Origin: Actinocorallia sp. API 0066
GTDB lineage: Bacteria; Actinomycetota; Actinomycetes; Streptosporangiales; Streptosporangiaceae
Direction of reading: 5' to 3'
DNA length: 64,000 bases
Assembly (NCBI RefSeq): GCF_020991275.1
Contig: NZ_JAJLQY010000010.1
Location: 186,001 to 250,000, forward strand
Shown here: positions 3,067 through 29,814 of the stretch, piece by piece
Position numbering within the stretch: the stretch's first letter is position 1
Layout: every line of letters starts with the position of its first letter
Made by a program: the position numbers and the translations under genes
Notes under the pieces: generated by a model
What the model saw: only the letters and a program-made list of their open reading frames with translations
What the model was told of the DNA's origin: nothing
The model's database searches: none

Positions 3067-3481
3067 CGTCGTCCGTTCCGTCGAGCACCGGCGAACCGTG
3101 GTTCACCCACAGGCGCCAGCGGCCCTCATCACGTACGAACACCTTGGTGGACACGACGCTTCCCCCGGCGATGAAACCCTCCTCGCCCTCGTCGGCCGTG
3201 AGGATGTTCTCCTCGCACGTCAGGACGGCCTGGTCGCCGCGCACCTCGGTCCGCACGTCGGTGAGCACGAACTGGATGTAGGCGGTGTTCGCCATGATCA
3301 GCGCCCACGAGCGCATGATCTCGTCGCGCCCGCGCAGCATCGACCAGCCCGGGTGGACGCAGGTGAGCGTCTCGGCGAAGTCCCCGTCCGCCCAGACCTC
3401 GTGCATGAGGTCCAGGTCACCGTTCTCAAAAGCCGAATAGAACCTGGCATTCGCGGCCTCTACCGCTGCGGCGTCATCCAC
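3053..3481 (-). CDS. SnoaL/NTF2-like protein inside the folate operon
   Basis: The 142-residue protein has the NTF2-like cone-fold pattern. It has an N-terminal helix (AANARFYSAFENGDLDLMHEVWAD), a WSMLRGRDEIMRSW helix and then alternating strands ending in RDEGRWRLWVNHGSPVL. The family includes isomerases and many proteins without known activity, so the reaction is unknown. The GTG start overlaps folP by 8 bases and the 3' end overlaps folB by 14. Because it is embedded this tightly in the folate operon, a role tied to pterin metabolism is possible, but this rests on position only. The last residues (TDDDGSD) are acidic and probably disordered. Confidence 0.85.
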   Translation of the reverse strand: MDDAAAVEAANARFYSAFENGDLDLMHEVWADGDFAETLTCVHPGWSMLRGRDEIMRSWALIMANTAYIQFVLTDVRTEVRGDQAVLTCEENILTADEGEEGFIAGGSVVSTKVFVRDEGRWRLWVNHGSPVLDGTDDDGSD

Positions 3482-4313
3482 GCGCTGAGCCTACGGCCGC
3501 CGCCACCCGTACCGCGTCCGCGTTCGCCTTGACGTTGTGAACCCGTACGCACCAGGCCCCCTCCAGCGCGGCGATGGCGCTGACGGCGACCGTCGCGTCG
3601 TCACATTCCGTGAACGGGCGTGGGCGGCCGTCGGCGTCGGCGAGGAGCTTGCCGAGGAACCGTTTGCGGGACGCGCCGATCAGCACCGGGAAGTCCCGGC
3701 TGAGTTCGCGGGTCACGGCGAGGAGTTCCCAGTTGTGCTCGGGCTGCTTGGCGAACCCCAGCCCCGGGTCCAGCACGATCATCTCCGGCGCGACCCCCTG
3801 GCCGATGACCTCTTCGACCCGTGCCCTGAGTTCCTTCTGGACGTCCACGACGATGTCCCGGTACTGGGCCCGGGTGTGCATCTCGTGCCCGTGGCCGCGC
3901 CAGTGCATCACCACGTAAGGCACCCCCGCCCCTGCGACGAACTGCGCCATGTCGGGGTCTGCGAGCCCGCCGCTCACGTCGTTCACCAGCCGCGCGCCCG
4001 CCGCCACCGCCGCTTCCGCCACCTCGGCCCGCATCGTGTCGACGCTGACCGGCACCCCTTCGCCCACCAGCCCCGCCACCACGGGCAGCACCCGCCGCAG
4101 CTCCTCTTTCAACGAGACCCGCTGCGCCCCGGGCCGCGTCGATTCCCCACCCACGTCGACGATGTCGGCCCCGTCCCGCACCAACTCAAGCCCATGCTTC
4201 ACCGCCTGCTCCTGATCAAACCACTCCCCCCCATCACTGAAGGAGTCAGGAGTGACGTTCACCACCCCCATGACCAAACACCGATCACCATCAGGCAGCC
4301 CAGGAACCCTCAT
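3474..4313 (-). CDS. folP: Dihydropteroate synthase
   Basis: DHPS condenses hydroxymethyl-dihydropterin pyrophosphate with p-aminobenzoate and is the sulfonamide target. The 279-residue TIM-barrel sequence shows NVTPDSFSDGG at residues 19-29, the GGESTRPGA loop, VNDVSGG, DPGLGFAK, and the SRKRFLG segment near the C-terminus. It is the first gene of this folate operon. The 43 bases upstream separate it from an unrelated low-GC lipoprotein gene, so its natural upstream context appears to have been interrupted. Confidence 0.95.
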   Translation of the reverse strand: MRVPGLPDGDRCLVMGVVNVTPDSFSDGGEWFDQEQAVKHGLELVRDGADIVDVGGESTRPGAQRVSLKEELRRVLPVVAGLVGEGVPVSVDTMRAEVAEAAVAAGARLVNDVSGGLADPDMAQFVAGAGVPYVVMHWRGHGHEMHTRAQYRDIVVDVQKELRARVEEVIGQGVAPEMIVLDPGLGFAKQPEHNWELLAVTRELSRDFPVLIGASRKRFLGKLLADADGRPRPFTECDDATVAVSAIAALEGAWCVRVHNVKANADAVRVAAAVGSARG

Positions 4314-4356: not shown

Positions 4357-4914
4357 CTACTCCACCCCCGGCACCCGAAAACACCCAGACCCCACATTAA
4401 CCCCAATGCGTACGCCTCTTTTATTGCTAGCTTCAATTATCTCGAATGATGCACCATACCCAACTGTCGGCGCATTGAAGACATATTCGCGCCGATTACC
4501 ATTGTTGGACACCCGAGTCCAGCCTAGATCAGCAAGTGATTGAGAGAGCCCGGAGAGCACGACTGCCGGATCCCGGTCACCGACGACAACAAAAGTATCG
4601 ACGGTCTCACGAAATGGCGAGTAGCTCGGATACCACGACTCACTACGAGACTCTGCGCCAGGAACATCCATAGCCATAGATTCCGAACAGGAGACAGGCG
4701 CAATTACAGGGCTCTGCAAGACGAGCCCATCGCCCATAGATTCCTCGACCTGTCGAACATACCCGCGAAGAACTTCCGCGACCACGTCCGGAGCAGCAGT
4801 CGGAAGCGGCCCTTCAAAATCATTTATCATGGACCCAAGATTCGAACACGCCATAGTTCCGAACAAGACAACGACTGGCAAGGACAGTTTTATAGGTACC
4901 GCACAGTTGGTCAT
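4357..4914 (-). CDS. Putative small lipoprotein, hydrolase-linked
   Basis: The 185-residue product starts with a short signal-like segment (IKLSLPVVVLFGTMAC) ending in a plausible lipobox cysteine, so export and lipidation are likely. The rest looks like a small soluble domain with several beta strands (TVDTFVVVGDRDPAVVLS, RREYVFNAPTVGYGASFEI, RGVRIGVNVGSGCF). I do not recognise the family. Its ATG overlaps the stop of the DUF1023 hydrolase (ATGA), so the two are translationally coupled. Base composition is about half G+C, far below the window average and matching the 3' part of that hydrolase, which suggests both arrived together. An immunity or chaperone role is conjecture. Confidence 0.7.
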   Translation of the reverse strand: MTNCAVPIKLSLPVVVLFGTMACSNLGSMINDFEGPLPTAAPDVVAEVLRGYVRQVEESMGDGLVLQSPVIAPVSCSESMAMDVPGAESRSESWYPSYSPFRETVDTFVVVGDRDPAVVLSGLSQSLADLGWTRVSNNGNRREYVFNAPTVGYGASFEIIEASNKRGVRIGVNVGSGCFRVPGVE

Positions 4915-6644
4915 CTATAGAGCCTTGGCCTCTCGGCAAGAACCGGGTCGTCTGATTGCTCGGGTGTAAAGTGACCGCCCATAATCACCTTTGCCTGATT
5001 GTCCAGACTTTGTGATTCTTCTGCCCAGTAGGCACTATGACCTCTTGTATCCGTCGCGAGAATATTAGCACCGAATCCTTCATCTGAAGGAACTTGCGGA
5101 ACTACCGACACCCCATTAATGGCAGCACCACCATGAGTGAACCGACCTATCTGAGGAACAGGATCCCCAGTCGCCGCCATGACCCACACATTCTCAGGCT
5201 TAACATCGAGATCCTTTGCTTCGCCTACATGCATACCAGGACTCCCCACAGCAATCACCTCATCGACTTTGAGGTCGCCGCGAATAGCAGCTTCACCGAT
5301 CACAACTGAGCCATAGCTATGCCCTATTGCAGTAACATGCTTGCTGGAACCAGCCGGAAGCCCGTCAATGAATCGAAGCAGTTTCGGAGCACCTGCCTCA
5401 GCGTACTTATCCACCGGAGCATCCTTCAGGATCGTGTCTGGAGCGTCATAGCCAAGCCAGACGATAGTCGCAACGGATCCGGATCCATATTTCACACTAC
5501 GTCGCCACAGATTTGCCGCCCTGTCTAGATCCCCCCGAATACTATCTATCTGTGCCGTCGTTCCAGGAACGTAAACGGCAACATTATCCGCACTGTCCGG
5601 ATCTCCGATAGACAGGATCAACCTACCGTCAGGCCCATCAAGACCATCAGAGATGGCACTCAGCCTGAGTCCGAACTTCAATCCCCCACCTCCAAATGAG
5701 TCCCATTCTCCAGGCACTGTCGAATCAAATCCGATCAATCTCACTTTCAGGCCGCCACCTTCGAGCCTTTCAATCTGTCCCACAAGTTGCCTGAGGCGGG
5801 TGAGGTCTCGGGTTTCGAAAGGGGTTTGGTGGGTGGGGGGTAGGGATTCCAGGTGGGTTAGGCGGGTGGTGAGGGTTTGGCGGTTGGCTTTGTCTCGGGC
5901 GGGGGTGGGGAGGCCGTCGGTCCAGCCGATGGTGGAGGGGAAGGCTCGGGTGTAGAGGGATTGTTGGCGGGGGGTGAGGTGGGACCACCAGGTGGCGGCG
6001 GCCTGGGGGTCGTGGACGGGGATGTCCATCGGGTGGAGGCCGGAATTGATGAGGCTTGTGTAGAGGGAGTGGTTTTCGCCCATGAGGGTTTTCATCAGGG
6101 CGTTCGAGGCTTTGATCCACTCTTGTCGGGTGGGGTCGGCGGCGGCTTTGAGGAGGTCGCGGCGGCGGCGCAGGTCGGGGAGTTCCACGCGCAGGTCGGC
6201 GCCTGCGCGGGCGATGCGCCGACCGGGCCCGGAGGGGGCGCCCAGCGACGTCAGAAGGCGGGAGATCTCCTCGCCGACGGAGATCCAGGTCCGCGCGGCA
6301 CGGTCCAGGACGCGCACGAGCTCGGCGATCCCGGACGGCGACCCTTCGGCCACGCCGGGGCGCGAGGAGGGCCCGGCCCCGGGAGCGGGCAGCGCGGGCT
6401 CAGGGACACGCACAGGAGGGGTGAGGGCGCGTCCCACCTCGTCGGCGCGGTAGGCGGCGTCCCCGACGGCTCTGCGGACGTCCCGGTGCCGGTCGGCGAC
6501 GCGTGTGTGGAGGGCGCTTCCGGCGGGCCCGACGAGCACGTCCGAGCCCAGCAGCCGGTAGATCCCGGCTGCCGCGGCCCCGGCCCGCGCGCCCTCCCGC
6601 GCGATCCCGGCCCCGGCCCGCCGCACCAGTTCGCCCGTGACCAT
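4911..6644 (-). CDS. DUF1023 alpha/beta hydrolase, chimeric in base composition
   Basis: The 577-residue protein has a high-GC, helical N-terminal part (about residues 1-290) and a C-terminal alpha/beta hydrolase of the DUF1023 (Abhydrolase_8) type. The nucleophile elbow GHSYGS places the serine at about 443. Likely Asp and His partners are in ATGDPVP (about 493) and TRGHSAYW (about 536). Acyl-ester hydrolysis is expected; the substrate is unknown. The start at MVTGEL follows GGGAGGGCTGC, better than any start further upstream. Base composition falls sharply near 5760. A WXG100 gene lies divergently upstream, which hints at type VII secretion. Confidence 0.85.
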   Translation of the reverse strand: MVTGELVRRAGAGIAREGARAGAAAAGIYRLLGSDVLVGPAGSALHTRVADRHRDVRRAVGDAAYRADEVGRALTPPVRVPEPALPAPGAGPSSRPGVAEGSPSGIAELVRVLDRAARTWISVGEEISRLLTSLGAPSGPGRRIARAGADLRVELPDLRRRRDLLKAAADPTRQEWIKASNALMKTLMGENHSLYTSLINSGLHPMDIPVHDPQAAATWWSHLTPRQQSLYTRAFPSTIGWTDGLPTPARDKANRQTLTTRLTHLESLPPTHQTPFETRDLTRLRQLVGQIERLEGGGLKVRLIGFDSTVPGEWDSFGGGGLKFGLRLSAISDGLDGPDGRLILSIGDPDSADNVAVYVPGTTAQIDSIRGDLDRAANLWRRSVKYGSGSVATIVWLGYDAPDTILKDAPVDKYAEAGAPKLLRFIDGLPAGSSKHVTAIGHSYGSVVIGEAAIRGDLKVDEVIAVGSPGMHVGEAKDLDVKPENVWVMAATGDPVPQIGRFTHGGAAINGVSVVPQVPSDEGFGANILATDTRGHSAYWAEESQSLDNQAKVIMGGHFTPEQSDDPVLAERPRLYR

Positions 6645-6999
6645 GCAGCCCTCCCGGCGGGCGCCCCTCACCCGCCGGAAGCCATCCTCAGCACCTGCGG
6701 GCCCGCACGTCCCCTACTTGCCCGAACCCGCACCCGCCCGAACCGTCCCCTTGACCGGCCGCGGACGGCGCCGACGGCCCCGCGAAAGCGCATTTCTCGG
6801 GTTTCCGCCGGATATCAGGTATCAGTGCCGCTACCTCAGGACAGCTGGGGAAATAGCGGCACGCTCGAATGACCGATCGGCCCGGATTACTCAGGGACAG
6901 CGGTGACTTTTCCACACAAGGCGACGAAGCGGCGGCGGGATTCTCCGGGACGGCCTAAAGTCTTGGCCAATCGGTCTTCCACGGAAAGGACTGACGTCC
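6645..6999. other. Divergent intergenic region between hydrolase and WXG100 genes
   Basis: No convincing gene is seen in these 355 bases. Short open frames exist on both strands but lack ribosome sites and family resemblance. The region must hold promoters for both flanking genes, yet I found no good -35/-10 pair. The one clear structure is a 9-base inverted repeat listed separately. Confidence 0.6.
6825..6862. repeat. Perfect 9-base inverted repeat, possible operator or leader hairpin
   Basis: GTGCCGCTA and TAGCGGCAC are perfect inverted copies separated by 20 bases. It lies about 180 bases upstream of the hydrolase start and 140 upstream of the WXG100 start. It could be a regulator site for the divergent pair or a hairpin in the hydrolase leader; it lacks a U-tract expected of a terminator. 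Confidence 0.5.
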
Positions 7000-7272
7000 A
7001 TGGGCGCGGATCGGCGCGGCGGGAATCTGGGGCAGATGGAGGAGTTGTCGCGGCTCTTCTCCAAACACTCCCGGAACCTGGACAGCCTGATCAGGGATCT
7101 GAACGGTCGTACCGTCGGGTCCTCGGAGATCTGGTGGGGTCCGGGCGCCGACCGTTTCCGGGCGGCGTGGGCGGAGGCCAAATCCGCTTTCGACAGGATG
7201 GCCGTCGCCCTTGAGGAGGGCGCCGGCGACATCCGCCGCTCGCAGGCGAACATCGAGGCGGCGACCCGCTGA
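7000..7272 (+). CDS. WXG100 family (ESX/type VII) protein
   Basis: The 90-residue, helical, cysteine-free product has the size and layout of WXG100 proteins. There are two amphipathic helices (MEELSRLFSKHSRNLDSLIR and ADRFRAAWAEAKSAFDRMA) joined by a turn with EIWWGPGADRF, a variant of the W-x-G motif. Such proteins are small substrates or partners of ESX-type secretion machines. The start is set by GGAAAGGA ten bases upstream. No ESX ATPase or membrane component is in the window, so any machinery is encoded elsewhere. The divergent DUF1023 hydrolase is a plausible partner. Confidence 0.8.
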   Translation: MGADRRGGNLGQMEELSRLFSKHSRNLDSLIRDLNGRTVGSSEIWWGPGADRFRAAWAEAKSAFDRMAVALEEGAGDIRRSQANIEAATR

Positions 7273-7330: not shown

Positions 7331-7915
7331 TCAGGAACGGCCGAGAATGAGGCTCATCGCCTCGGCGCGCGTTTCCGCGGATTTACGGAAATCCCCACGG
7401 ACCGCGGAAGTGATGGTCTTGGCCCCCGGCTTGCGTACTCCGCGCATCGTCATGCAGAGGTGTTCCGCCTCGATCACGACGATGACGCCCCGCGGGTCGA
7501 GGTGTTCCATCAGCGCGTCCGCCACCTGGCTGGTCAACCGCTCCTGAACCTGCGGGCGTCGCGCGTAGACGTCGACAAGGCGGGCCAGTTTCGACAGGCC
7601 CGTGATCTGCCCCTTCTCCCCCGGGGTGTATCCGACGTGCGCGACCCCGTGGAACGGGACAAGGTGGTGTTCACAGGTCGAGTACAGCTCGATGTCCTTG
7701 ACCAGCACCATCTCGTCGTGATCGGCCTCGAAGGACGTCGTCAGCGCGTCCTCGGGGCCCATGGCCAGGCCGGCGAACTGCTCGGCATAGGCCCGGGCCA
7801 CCCTCGCGGGGGTGGCCCGGAGTCCGTCACGGTCGGGATCCTCACCGATCGCGTAGAGGATCTCGCGTACGGCTTTCTCGATCCGCGCGTGATCGAACTC
7901 CGGGGAAGCACTCAT
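7331..7915 (-). CDS. folE: GTP cyclohydrolase I
   Basis: FolE opens GTP to 7,8-dihydroneopterin triphosphate, the entry to folate. The 194-residue product contains the zinc-site segment [11 protein letters not shown], the [15 protein letters not shown] and [12 protein letters not shown] segments, and the second zinc cysteine in [17 protein letters not shown]. The ATG at MSASPEF is chosen because the family begins there; the longer open frame runs into ftsH. The gene lies just downstream of ftsH on the same strand with a 23-base gap, so the two may be co-transcribed. Confidence 0.95.
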
Positions 7916-29418: not shown

Positions 29419-29814
29419 GTGGACCAAGTCGTTGATCTTGACCGGGCTGCGGCGGAGGTCGCCGTGCGGGTTGTGGGGTGGGCTGAAGCCGGGCTTGAAT
29501 TCGGGGGGATCACCTGGCGGGAGGGGGCGGTGTCGTGGCCCCGGAGGCTGGAGACCGAGCGGGCTCTTGTCGCCGAACCGGACTCGATCGGGGTGCGGAT
29601 CCGTGGTGCGGACGGATGGACTGAAGTGCAGGTGGTCCTCTATCGCGGAGGGTGGGCTGACCTCGACGCGTTGTGCGCTGATGACGTTGTCACTGAATGT
29701 CCGCGGATTTCCACGGCGGCGGAATTCGGGGATCTGCTTGATTCTGCTGTCGGTCGTTTCTTCGGCGGTGTTGGCGCGGCTGTCGCGGACGGGCCTGTAG
29801 AGGGAAACCGTTAG
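29419..29814 (+). CDS. Hypothetical protein, 131 residues
   Basis: The product is acidic and soluble. It looks like one alpha-beta domain: AAAEVAVRVVGWAEAGLEFG, a strand pair ITWREGAVSWPRRLETE, VGVRI-like strands, then WADLDALCADDVVTECPRIS and a final helix. The repeated W/G-rich strands recall small immunity-type or IMR-like domains, but I cannot assign a family. GGGAGGGGAG is seven bases before the GTG start. G+C is lower than in neighbours, in keeping with the integrase scar next to it. Confidence 0.6.
   Translation: MDQVVDLDRAAAEVAVRVVGWAEAGLEFGGITWREGAVSWPRRLETERALVAEPDSIGVRIRGADGWTEVQVVLYRGGWADLDALCADDVVTECPRISTAAEFGDLLDSAVGRFFGGVGAAVADGPVEGNR

What the first reader, a model, noticed from the sequence alone, without database searches (positions are those of the whole stretch)
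4357..7272. Chimeric DUF1023 hydrolase, coupled lipoprotein and divergent WXG100 protein as a possible type VII effector module
The hydrolase gene changes from very GC-rich (first ~870 bases) to about half G+C near 5760. The low-GC part carries the whole catalytic domain and continues through a lipoprotein gene joined by an ATGA overlap. A WXG100 gene sits divergently upstream. A fixed N-terminal half with a swapped effector domain plus a linked small membrane-anchored gene is the layout of polymorphic toxin/immunity loci. It also splits the folate cluster, consistent with insertion.
Basis: partly seen in the sequence, partly recalled or inferred. Interest (0 to 1): 0.7.

Follow-up and report, generated by a model that had tools for sequence, protein, structure and literature searches.

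The report
Hydrolase paired with LppA-like lipoprotein
A soil actinobacterium carries a probable lipid- or ester-cutting effector next to a lipoprotein that may protect the cell from it; similar pairs recur in other actinobacteria and some xanthomonads, but what they do has not been tested here.

Summary
In an Actinocorallia genome a WXG100 gene, a DUF1023 hydrolase and a lipoprotein gene (ATGA overlap) lie between folE and folP. Third-position G+C falls from 0.87 to 0.45 inside the hydrolase, just before the catalytic domain.

It is not a recent swap of an unrelated effector: all 3 held Actinocorallia genomes have the same genes there, and one has the same low-G+C half.

The lipoprotein belongs to a family without a Pfam match (0 of 38 members scanned). 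Members sit downstream of DUF1023 hydrolases across Actinobacteria and in Luteimonas/Lysobacter, sometimes in tandem, and are distantly related to LppA (profile-profile E 2e-9). LppA itself lies downstream of DUF1023 in 17 of 20 hits.

Best reading: an exported esterase/lipase-like effector with an immunity lipoprotein, working like TslA/TilA of Staphylococcus. Export, toxicity and immunity are inferred. Canonical ESX export is doubtful, because EccB was not found in this genome or in one of its two sister genomes. An envelope enzyme with a lipoprotein partner remains a serious rival.

The parts
4357..4914 (-). LppA-like lipoprotein gene (185 aa; putative lipobox TMAC, weaker than the LSGC of the A. 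populi ortholog); proposed immunity or inhibitor protein
   Evidence: Profile family found downstream of DUF1023 hydrolases; hhalign to LppA E 2e-9; AF2 pLDDT 82.6
4911..6644 (-). DUF1023 (Abhydrolase_8) serine hydrolase; ORF opens at 6671, likelier ATG start at 6644; overlaps the lipoprotein gene by ATGA
   Evidence: Pfam PF06259 E 2.4e-37; AF2 pLDDT 86.1, pTM 0.80
5760..6644 (-). Mostly high-GC N-terminal part: helical region to about residue 210 plus conserved linker with WW..L and GW.DG.P...RD.ANR (residue numbers of the 586-aa ORF)
   Evidence: AF2 helices 2-42, 48-81, 112-142 and others; conserved linker residues; GC3 0.87 up to codon 285
4911..5744 (-). Low-GC catalytic alpha/beta-hydrolase domain with S452, D503, H545
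   Evidence: The three residues are invariant in the 37 aligned sequences, chosen out of 70 hydrolase ORFs; fold matches to lipases, esterases and cutinases Z about 13
5789..5789 (.). Third-position G+C changepoint (after codon 285)
7000..7272 (+). WXG100 gene (90 aa), divergent; 82% identical paralog of a WXG100 gene beside an FtsK/EccC-like ATPase in the same genome
   Evidence: PF06013 29.6 bits, cut-off 27.3

Best explanation
The locus encodes an exported serine hydrolase effector with its membrane-anchored immunity lipoprotein. Step 1: a helical N-terminal region, probably with a WXG100-type helical partner, takes the hydrolase out of the cell by a WXG100/FtsK-type (type VII-like) route. 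Step 2: the C-terminal alpha/beta-hydrolase domain cuts an ester, most likely envelope lipid, in neighbouring cells. Step 3: the LppA-like lipoprotein, made from the overlapping gene and anchored outside the membrane, binds the hydrolase and protects the producer. The catalytic domain and lipoprotein evolve as one module whose alleles are exchanged or diverge quickly, while the N-terminal half follows the chromosome more closely. Shown: gene layout, pairing across genera, conserved triad, folds (predicted), composition and synonymous-site pattern. Inferred: export, substrate, toxicity, immunity, allele exchange.
For: Pairing. Of 70 hydrolase ORFs in held loci (2 fragments under 200 aa dropped), 41 of 57 with the linker have the lipoprotein family downstream, against 1 of 13 without it; one of these 13, L082, is cut by a contig end. 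By elbow: 37 of 49 with GHSYG, 0 of 14 with CHSYG, 5 of 7 with another or none.

Genome-wide. In 60 relatives, 24 of 27 lipoprotein hits at E<=1e-8 lie next to a PF06259 hit (my reading of the tables, two of them beside partial hydrolase matches), and 0 of the 13 weaker hits do. In 296 genomes of the class, 45 of 58 hits at E<=1e-6 do.

LppA. PF16708 lies downstream of PF06259 in 17 of 20 hits over the cut-off; hhalign between the two lipoprotein families gives probability 96.3 and E 2e-9.

Tandem copies: behind 6 of the 42 hydrolases that have the lipoprotein, 4 copies in L195 and 2 in L196, 3 and 2 LppA genes at two sites of G122.

Export-type neighbours: PPE, WXG100_2 or WXG100 hits at E<=0.01 in hydrolases of relatives (5, 3 and 2 of 37). 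EspC- or WXG100-type hits at E<=0.1 for 6 of 9 upstream small genes that I chose, only 1 over its cut-off.

Modularity: the same N-terminal region with an HEFGH-bearing C-terminus at G000:C44, and DUF1023 at the end of a 2280-aa Ig-repeat protein in Couchioplanes, again followed by the lipoprotein.

Divergence: lipoprotein identity is 35% between G000 and G002, against 85-97% for folP, folE, folB, ftsH, WXG100 and the SnoaL-like gene.
Against: No toxicity, binding or secretion has been tested. EccB was not found in G000 or G002, so the export route is open. The window's N-terminal region matches no WXG, PPE or T7SS Pfam model, and no WxG was seen at its hairpin in the alignment. In Luteimonas/Lysobacter the pair lacks the N-terminal helical region and sits in a constant gene neighbourhood, which looks more like housekeeping. 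16 of 57 linker-bearing hydrolases have no lipoprotein downstream, among them all six Catellatospora loci. 11 of 58 lipoprotein-family hits have no hydrolase within the stretch fetched. The window has a single lipoprotein copy, and the cassette is shared by all three genus members. Between G000 and G001 the catalytic half is less saturated at synonymous sites (observed/expected 0.85) than the N-terminal half (0.92), the opposite of the G000-G002 pattern.
Confidence: 0.5

Rival explanations
1. Physiological envelope enzyme. The hydrolase is an extracytoplasmic esterase or lipase acting on the producer's own envelope or on nutrients, and the LppA-like lipoprotein is its anchor, foldase or activator rather than an immunity protein.
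For: Same genes at the same place in all 3 genus members; a constant gene neighbourhood in Luteimonas/Lysobacter without the helical region; EccB not found in 2 of the 3 genomes that keep the cassette; no domain swap at the locus.
Against: Tandem and occasional lone lipoproteins, fast lipoprotein divergence, T7SS-type helical partners in relatives and shared N-terminal modules are unusual for an activator.
Confidence: 0.32
2. One reading: a recent polymorphic-toxin chimera whose C-terminal domain was swapped for an unrelated one, secreted by an ESX system.
For: Sharp G+C step near the domain boundary; apparent insertion between folE and folP; a paralog with the same N-terminus and another C-terminus.
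Against: The same catalytic domain and lipoprotein in all 3 genus members, with a low-GC catalytic half also in G002; EccB not found in G000.
Confidence: 0.08
3. A reading of the G+C step that can hold beside any of the above: the low G+C of the catalytic half and lipoprotein reflects weak selection for G+C and codon use in a fast-evolving, rarely expressed segment, not horizontal exchange.
For: Amino-acid identity of the two halves falls in parallel between genomes (N-terminal 66% and 42%, catalytic 71% and 54%), so protein divergence gives no sign of replacement. Saturation is reached faster where codon use is unconstrained. Against G001 the catalytic half is not saturated (observed/expected 0.85, 14 of 2000 shuffles).
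Against: Fourfold sites are saturated between G000 and G002 in the catalytic half (observed/expected 0.98) while both stay near GC3 0.47, and folE, folP, ftsH and WXG100 are unsaturated (0.24-0.65). An ordinary vertical history beside genes with median GC3 0.93 should have raised it.
Confidence: 0.4

Closest known systems
TslA / TilA / TlaA of Staphylococcus aureus (type VII-secreted phospholipase toxin, immunity lipoprotein, small helical partners; PMC10730906)
   Same: Lipase-type enzyme, an extracytoplasmic lipoprotein encoded beside it in varying copy number, and helical targeting parts. Seen in passages of the paper, one of them from its abstract.
   Different: There the lipase is N-terminal and the helical domain C-terminal, and the immunity lipoprotein is DUF576. 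Here the order is helical, then hydrolase; the hydrolase is DUF1023; the lipoprotein is LppA-like; the host is an actinobacterium. Sequence kinship to TslA or TilA was not tested.
LppA family, PF16708 (lipoprotein with solved structure 2v7s)
   Same: Lipoprotein of similar size encoded downstream of a DUF1023 hydrolase (17 of 20), tandem copies, profile homology E 2e-9, best structural match Z 8.0 tied with DUF4853 4mjg.
   Different: 0 of the 38 family members scanned (of 51 ORFs) reach any Pfam model at E<=0.01, so it is a distant branch, not a member of the Pfam family as drawn.
Tox-ABhydrolase-1/2/3 polymorphic toxins (PMC3482391)
   Same: Alpha/beta-hydrolase domains proposed as toxins, one type linked to WXG/T7SS proteins among other routes, with Imm66 and Imm69 (passages read).
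   Different: DUF1023 is not named in the held text, the first 300,000 of 357,715 characters, and no lipoprotein immunity of this type was seen in the passages shown.
DUF1023 hydrolases with a CHSYG elbow
   Same: Same Pfam domain.
   Different: 11 of the 14 lack the linker, and none is followed by the lipoprotein here (0 of 14).

Membership tests
DUF1023 / Abhydrolase_8 (PF06259) | Match over the curated cut-off, with nucleophile elbow and triad | tested here: met
   128.7 bits against 20.5; S452, D503, H545 invariant in the 37 aligned sequences
LppA (PF16708) | Match to the Pfam model | tested here: not met
   0 of 38 members scanned at E<=0.01, window included
LppA (PF16708) | Common ancestry by profile comparison | tested here: met
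   hhalign probability 96.3, E 2e-9, 153 columns; part of this is signal peptide
LppA (PF16708) | Same fold | tested here: inconclusive
   2v7s Z 8.0, rmsd 4.1, 127 aligned, at the level of chance best matches and tied with 4mjg
Lipoprotein | Signal peptide with lipobox | tested here: inconclusive
   A loose motif was found in 39 of 51 family ORFs; the window's copy was among those missed by the script and has TMAC on reading
WXG100 (PF06013) | Match over the cut-off | tested here: met
   29.6 bits against 27.3; but below the cut-off of TIGR03930, 35.2 against 44.85
T7SS (ESX) substrate | Canonical ESX machinery (EccB) in the same genome | tested here: not met
   EccB in G001 only, none in G000 (98.96% complete) or G002 (one contig); an FtsK/EccC-like ATPase beside WXG100 is present
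T7SS (ESX) substrate | WXG, PPE or T7SS_signal N-terminal domain in the hydrolase | tested here: inconclusive
   None in the window protein; PPE 5, WXG100_2 3, WXG100 2 of 37 relatives at E<=0.01
Polymorphic toxin system | Conserved N-terminal half with unrelated C-terminal domains | tested here: inconclusive
   Met for the paralog at G000:C44; not met at the orthologous locus in 3 genomes
Polymorphic toxin system | Toxicity neutralised by the neighbouring gene product | not testable with these tools
   Needs bench work
TslA/TilA | N-terminal lipase with C-terminal helical domain | tested here: not met
   Helical region is N-terminal and hydrolase C-terminal

The most novel reading that the evidence does not exclude
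DUF1023 hydrolases with LppA-like lipoproteins form one large, unrecognised effector-immunity family of Actinobacteria, with an outlier branch in Xanthomonadaceae: the actinobacterial counterpart of TslA/TilA. LppA, described in Pfam only as a lipoprotein confined to pathogenic Mycobacterium, would then be an immunity (inhibitor) lipoprotein for its neighbouring hydrolase. In Actinocorallia the effector would leave the cell by a minimal WXG100/FtsK-ATPase route without EccB.
Probability: 0.4. Interest if true: 0.78.

Novelty: new variant of a known kind. Interest (0 to 1): 0.56.

Why it matters
It ties two obscure families together: DUF1023 hydrolases, named in only 4 papers of the held library, none about them by title or abstract start, and a lipoprotein family without a Pfam match that reaches to LppA. 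The pairing gives both a concrete, testable function (effector and inhibitor). It would also extend the lipase-plus-lipoprotein-immunity idea, known from a firmicute type VII system, to actinobacteria, where as far as I recall interbacterial type VII effectors are little described. EccB not being found beside an intact cassette raises the question of how such proteins are exported.

Tried and rejected
Recent insertion with a foreign effector: rejected, because the same cassette and a low-GC catalytic half occur in a sister genome.

Sequencing artefact: unlikely for the same reason.

Naming the lipoprotein by Pfam, NCBIfam or PADLOC: no usable hit. Pfam 0 of 38; NCBIfam 1 of 38, a weak DUF721 hit at E 0.0075; PADLOC no hit for the three window proteins. 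The profile search of PDB sequences gave nothing below E 0.027.

WxG at the window hydrolase's hairpin: not found, and the alignment there is poor in relatives too.

The family search was iterative (inclusion E 1e-3). Its first round brought in only two ORFs beyond Actinocorallia, at E 3e-4, so profile drift is possible; adjacency and the genome-wide searches are the check on it. One of 51 family ORFs in held loci was not near a hydrolase.

A regex for the linker and a strict GHS elbow gave a useless table (Fisher p 0.73). I replaced it by profile coordinates (Fisher p 2.8e-5), which is the table I report; the change was made after seeing the first result. The elbow breakdown by lipoprotein status was made afterwards too.

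GC3 of catalytic domain and lipoprotein over 33 loci: lower for the lipoprotein than for neighbouring genes (p 1e-4) and the N-terminal part (p 0.002), marginal for the catalytic domain against the N-terminal part (p 0.047). The three Actinocorallia loci count as three, so this is weak as a general rule.

DcrB/LpqN-like and lachrymatory-synthase matches of the lipoprotein model are too weak to use.

Lipoprotein-like hits without a hydrolase (11 of 58): two of them (L184, L186) lie beside WXG100-like and T7SS_signal-like genes (Pfam run on L184 only) and L185 after a 756-aa protein with weak PPE and T7SS_signal hits. I did not resolve whether they are true family members.
Full report
WHAT IS THERE. 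The window belongs to an Actinocorallia genome. The genus follows from G001, whose contig 1 has the same length (1405409) as NZ_PVZV01000001.1, Actinocorallia populi A251, and from G001 being listed as the same genus as the window's genome. Reading down the minus strand after folE (7331-7915), there is a divergent WXG100 gene (7000-7272, +), a hydrolase gene (4911 to about 6644, -) and a small lipoprotein gene (4357-4914, -) overlapping it by ATGA; then folP (3474-4313) follows. This is the only PF06259 match in the genome.

COMPOSITION. A changepoint in third-position G+C lies after codon 285 (window 5789), from 0.867 to 0.454, far outside 200 shuffles. The predicted structure has a helix at 284-305 and the first strand of the catalytic domain at 310-316, numbered on the 586-residue ORF. 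Codon 285 counted from 6644 is residue 294 of that ORF, so the step falls inside the last helix before the catalytic domain. The lipoprotein is also low (GC3 0.52). Of 62 called window genes only these two and 29419-29814 are below 0.70. In the sister genome G002 the catalytic half (0.49) and lipoprotein (0.52) are equally low, although its best changepoint lies earlier (codon 239). In G001 they are intermediate (0.70, 0.73; changepoint at codon 410).

SHARED BY THE GENUS. All 3 held genomes of the genus have the same three genes between folE and folP. Identity of G000 to G002 and G001: N-terminal half 66% and 42%, catalytic domain 71% and 54%, lipoprotein 35% and 31%, WXG100 97% and 87%, folE 96% and 92%, folP 85% and 79%, ftsH 97% and 92%. 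Of 38 genomes outside the genus with folP, 27 gave loci. In 16 of these folE lies directly upstream of folP; in 11 it was not found within the flank, two of these being cut by contig ends. So the cassette probably entered in the ancestor of the genus, though the order is not uniform in relatives.

THE TIP BEHAVES DIFFERENTLY, WITH A CAVEAT. Fourfold-degenerate sites between G000 and G002 are saturated in the catalytic half (observed/expected 0.98; 871 of 2000 shuffles at or below the observed value) and in the lipoprotein (1.00; 1177 of 2000; only 36 sites). The N-terminal half (0.77), WXG100 (0.42), folP (0.65), ftsH (0.53) and folE (0.24) are not (0 of 2000 each). Saturated synonymous sites that stay near GC3 0.47 in two genomes are hard to explain by one old import slowly drifting to the host composition. 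Repeated replacement by divergent alleles of the same module, or a special lack of G+C selection, would fit. Two results do not help the replacement idea. Protein identity of the two halves falls in parallel. And between G000 and G001 the catalytic half is less saturated (0.85; 14 of 2000) than the N-terminal half (0.92; 243 of 2000). I cannot separate the two readings.

A RECURRING PAIR. Starting from the three Actinocorallia lipoproteins, an iterated profile search of held loci recovered a family found mostly just downstream of DUF1023 hydrolases: in Kitasatospora, Streptomyces, Micromonospora, Dactylosporangium, Couchioplanes, Glycomyces, Streptacidiphilus and Peterkaempfera loci, and in Luteimonas/Lysobacter of the Xanthomonadaceae. 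It is missing behind the Catellatospora (6 loci), Amorphoplanes (2) and Stackebrandtia (1) hydrolases. Of 70 hydrolase ORFs (two fragments dropped), 41 of 57 with the linker and 1 of 13 without it are followed by the lipoprotein. By elbow: GHSYG 37 of 49, CHSYG 0 of 14, other or none 5 of 7. These loci were fetched because they hold hydrolases, so I searched whole genomes for the lipoprotein family. In 60 relatives, 24 of 27 hits at E<=1e-8 lie beside a PF06259 hit, by my comparison of the tables; this includes a short remnant in G008 and a partial match in G009, and many of these genomes had supplied seeds. None of the 13 weaker hits do. In 296 genomes of the class, 39 of 58 hits at E<=1e-6 lie downstream of a hydrolase listed or 45 (the list was capped), and 6 more on reading the stretch (two loci, G139 and G236, hold hydrolases in broken pieces), making 45 of 58. 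One further hit is upstream of a hydrolase (G283), one is at a contig end (G058:C21), and 11 have no hydrolase in the stretch fetched. In G genomes that gave no seeds the figure is 36 of 48; near kin of the named seed loci may be among them.

LINK TO LppA. None of the 38 members scanned (of 51 family ORFs) matches Pfam. The predicted fold (pLDDT 82.6) matches LppA of M. tuberculosis (2v7s, Z 8.0, rmsd 4.1, 127 aligned) and a DUF4853 protein (4mjg, Z 8.0), at a level that can be chance. This led me to search PF16708. In the same 296 genomes 17 of 20 hits over the cut-off lie downstream of a PF06259 hydrolase, one lies upstream of one (G283), and for 2 no hydrolase was found in the stretch fetched. 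G122 has three tandem LppA genes at one hydrolase and two, plus a fragment, at another. Profile-profile comparison gives probability 96.3 and E 2e-9 over 153 columns, part of it signal peptide. That the M. tuberculosis gene order is Rv2542-lppA-lppB is recalled and was not tested.

THE ENZYME. PF06259 E 2.4e-37. S452, D503 and H545 are invariant in the 37 aligned sequences, which I chose from 70 ORFs; 2 of the 70, L098 and L116, show no elbow. The model (pLDDT 86.1, pTM 0.80) matches esterases, cutinases and Bacillus subtilis lipase A with Z about 13. The fold alone does not give the substrate. One of 37 relatives has a weak hit to the T6SS Tle3 phospholipase model.

EXPORT. Hydrolases of several relatives carry PPE (5 of 37), WXG100_2 (3 of 37) or WXG100 (2 of 37) hits at E<=0.01. 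Of nine small genes just upstream that I chose to scan, 6 have EspC- or WXG100-type hits at E<=0.1, one over its cut-off. The window protein has none of these and no WxG at its hairpin. Its WXG100 neighbour is an 82% paralog of a WXG100 gene beside a 1453-residue FtsK/EccC-like ATPase in the same genome; counterparts lie together in the other two species (Pfam run on the G000 ATPase only). EccB was found only in G001, which has what looks like a full ESX locus by eye. Export through a canonical ESX system is therefore not supported for this genome; a minimal WXG100/FtsK route is possible and untested.

MODULARITY. A second gene in the same genome (G000:C44) shares residues 38-179 of the hydrolase at 43% identity but ends in an unrelated region with an HEFGH motif, which I recall as a zinc-peptidase signature; no Pfam hit. 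In Couchioplanes the DUF1023 domain closes a 2280-residue Ig-repeat protein and is again followed by the lipoprotein. In Luteimonas/Lysobacter the helical region is missing but the lipoprotein is kept.

MECHANISM. I favour an exported esterase/lipase-type effector with an immunity lipoprotein (0.5). The strongest points are the tight pairing, tandem lipoproteins, fast divergence and T7SS-type helical partners in relatives. The strongest points against are the sharing by all genus members, EccB not found, the hydrolases without lipoprotein (16 of 57) and the housekeeping-like setting in Xanthomonadaceae. An envelope enzyme with a lipoprotein partner stands at 0.32.

KNOWN SYSTEMS. TslA/TilA of S. 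aureus (PMC10730906; passages) works alike but has the reverse domain order and another immunity family. Tox-ABhydrolase toxins (PMC3482391; passages) are the nearest described toxin domains; DUF1023 is not named in the held part of the text. Tandem T7SS immunity genes that recombine are described in PMC9484751 (abstract and outline). Searches for DUF1023 (4 papers), Abhydrolase_8 (4 hold it, 2 listed), PF06259 (6, 4 listed), two of Rv2542/Rv2543/lppA/lppB (37, 15 listed) and three T7SS-toxin word sets (0; 11; 26, 15 listed) showed no paper that by title or abstract start links DUF1023 to LppA or to T7SS toxins. Of the papers naming DUF1023 I opened only PMC8467076, one table passage listing a mutated Micrococcus luteus DUF1023 gene. 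The library omits most subscription journals.

Noticed in passing
L059:7730-9517 (G000:C44): Paralog of the hydrolase's N-terminal helical region with an unrelated C-terminus bearing HEFGH, followed by two uncharacterised ORFs; possibly another effector with its partner.
   Followed up: partly
L060 (G000:C6), L061, L062: WXG100 gene near a 1453-1498-residue FtsK/EccC-like ATPase and genes that by eye look like a tad pilus cluster, in all three Actinocorallia; EccB not found in two of the three genomes.
   Followed up: partly
L089, L099, L195, L254, L255: Tandem arrays of two to four LppA-like or LppA lipoproteins behind one hydrolase.
   Followed up: partly
L184, L186, L185: Lipoprotein-like domains beside WXG100-like and T7SS_signal- or PPE-like proteins but without a DUF1023 hydrolase; perhaps the same partner for other effectors.
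   Followed up: partly
L074-L076, L078, L079, L081, L083, L101: In Luteimonas/Lysobacter loci the hydrolase-lipoprotein pair lacks the helical region and sits after a helicase-like gene in a constant neighbourhood (read by eye).
   Followed up: no
window 29419-29814: Only other called gene in the window with GC3 below 0.70 (0.67); no Pfam match.
   Followed up: partly
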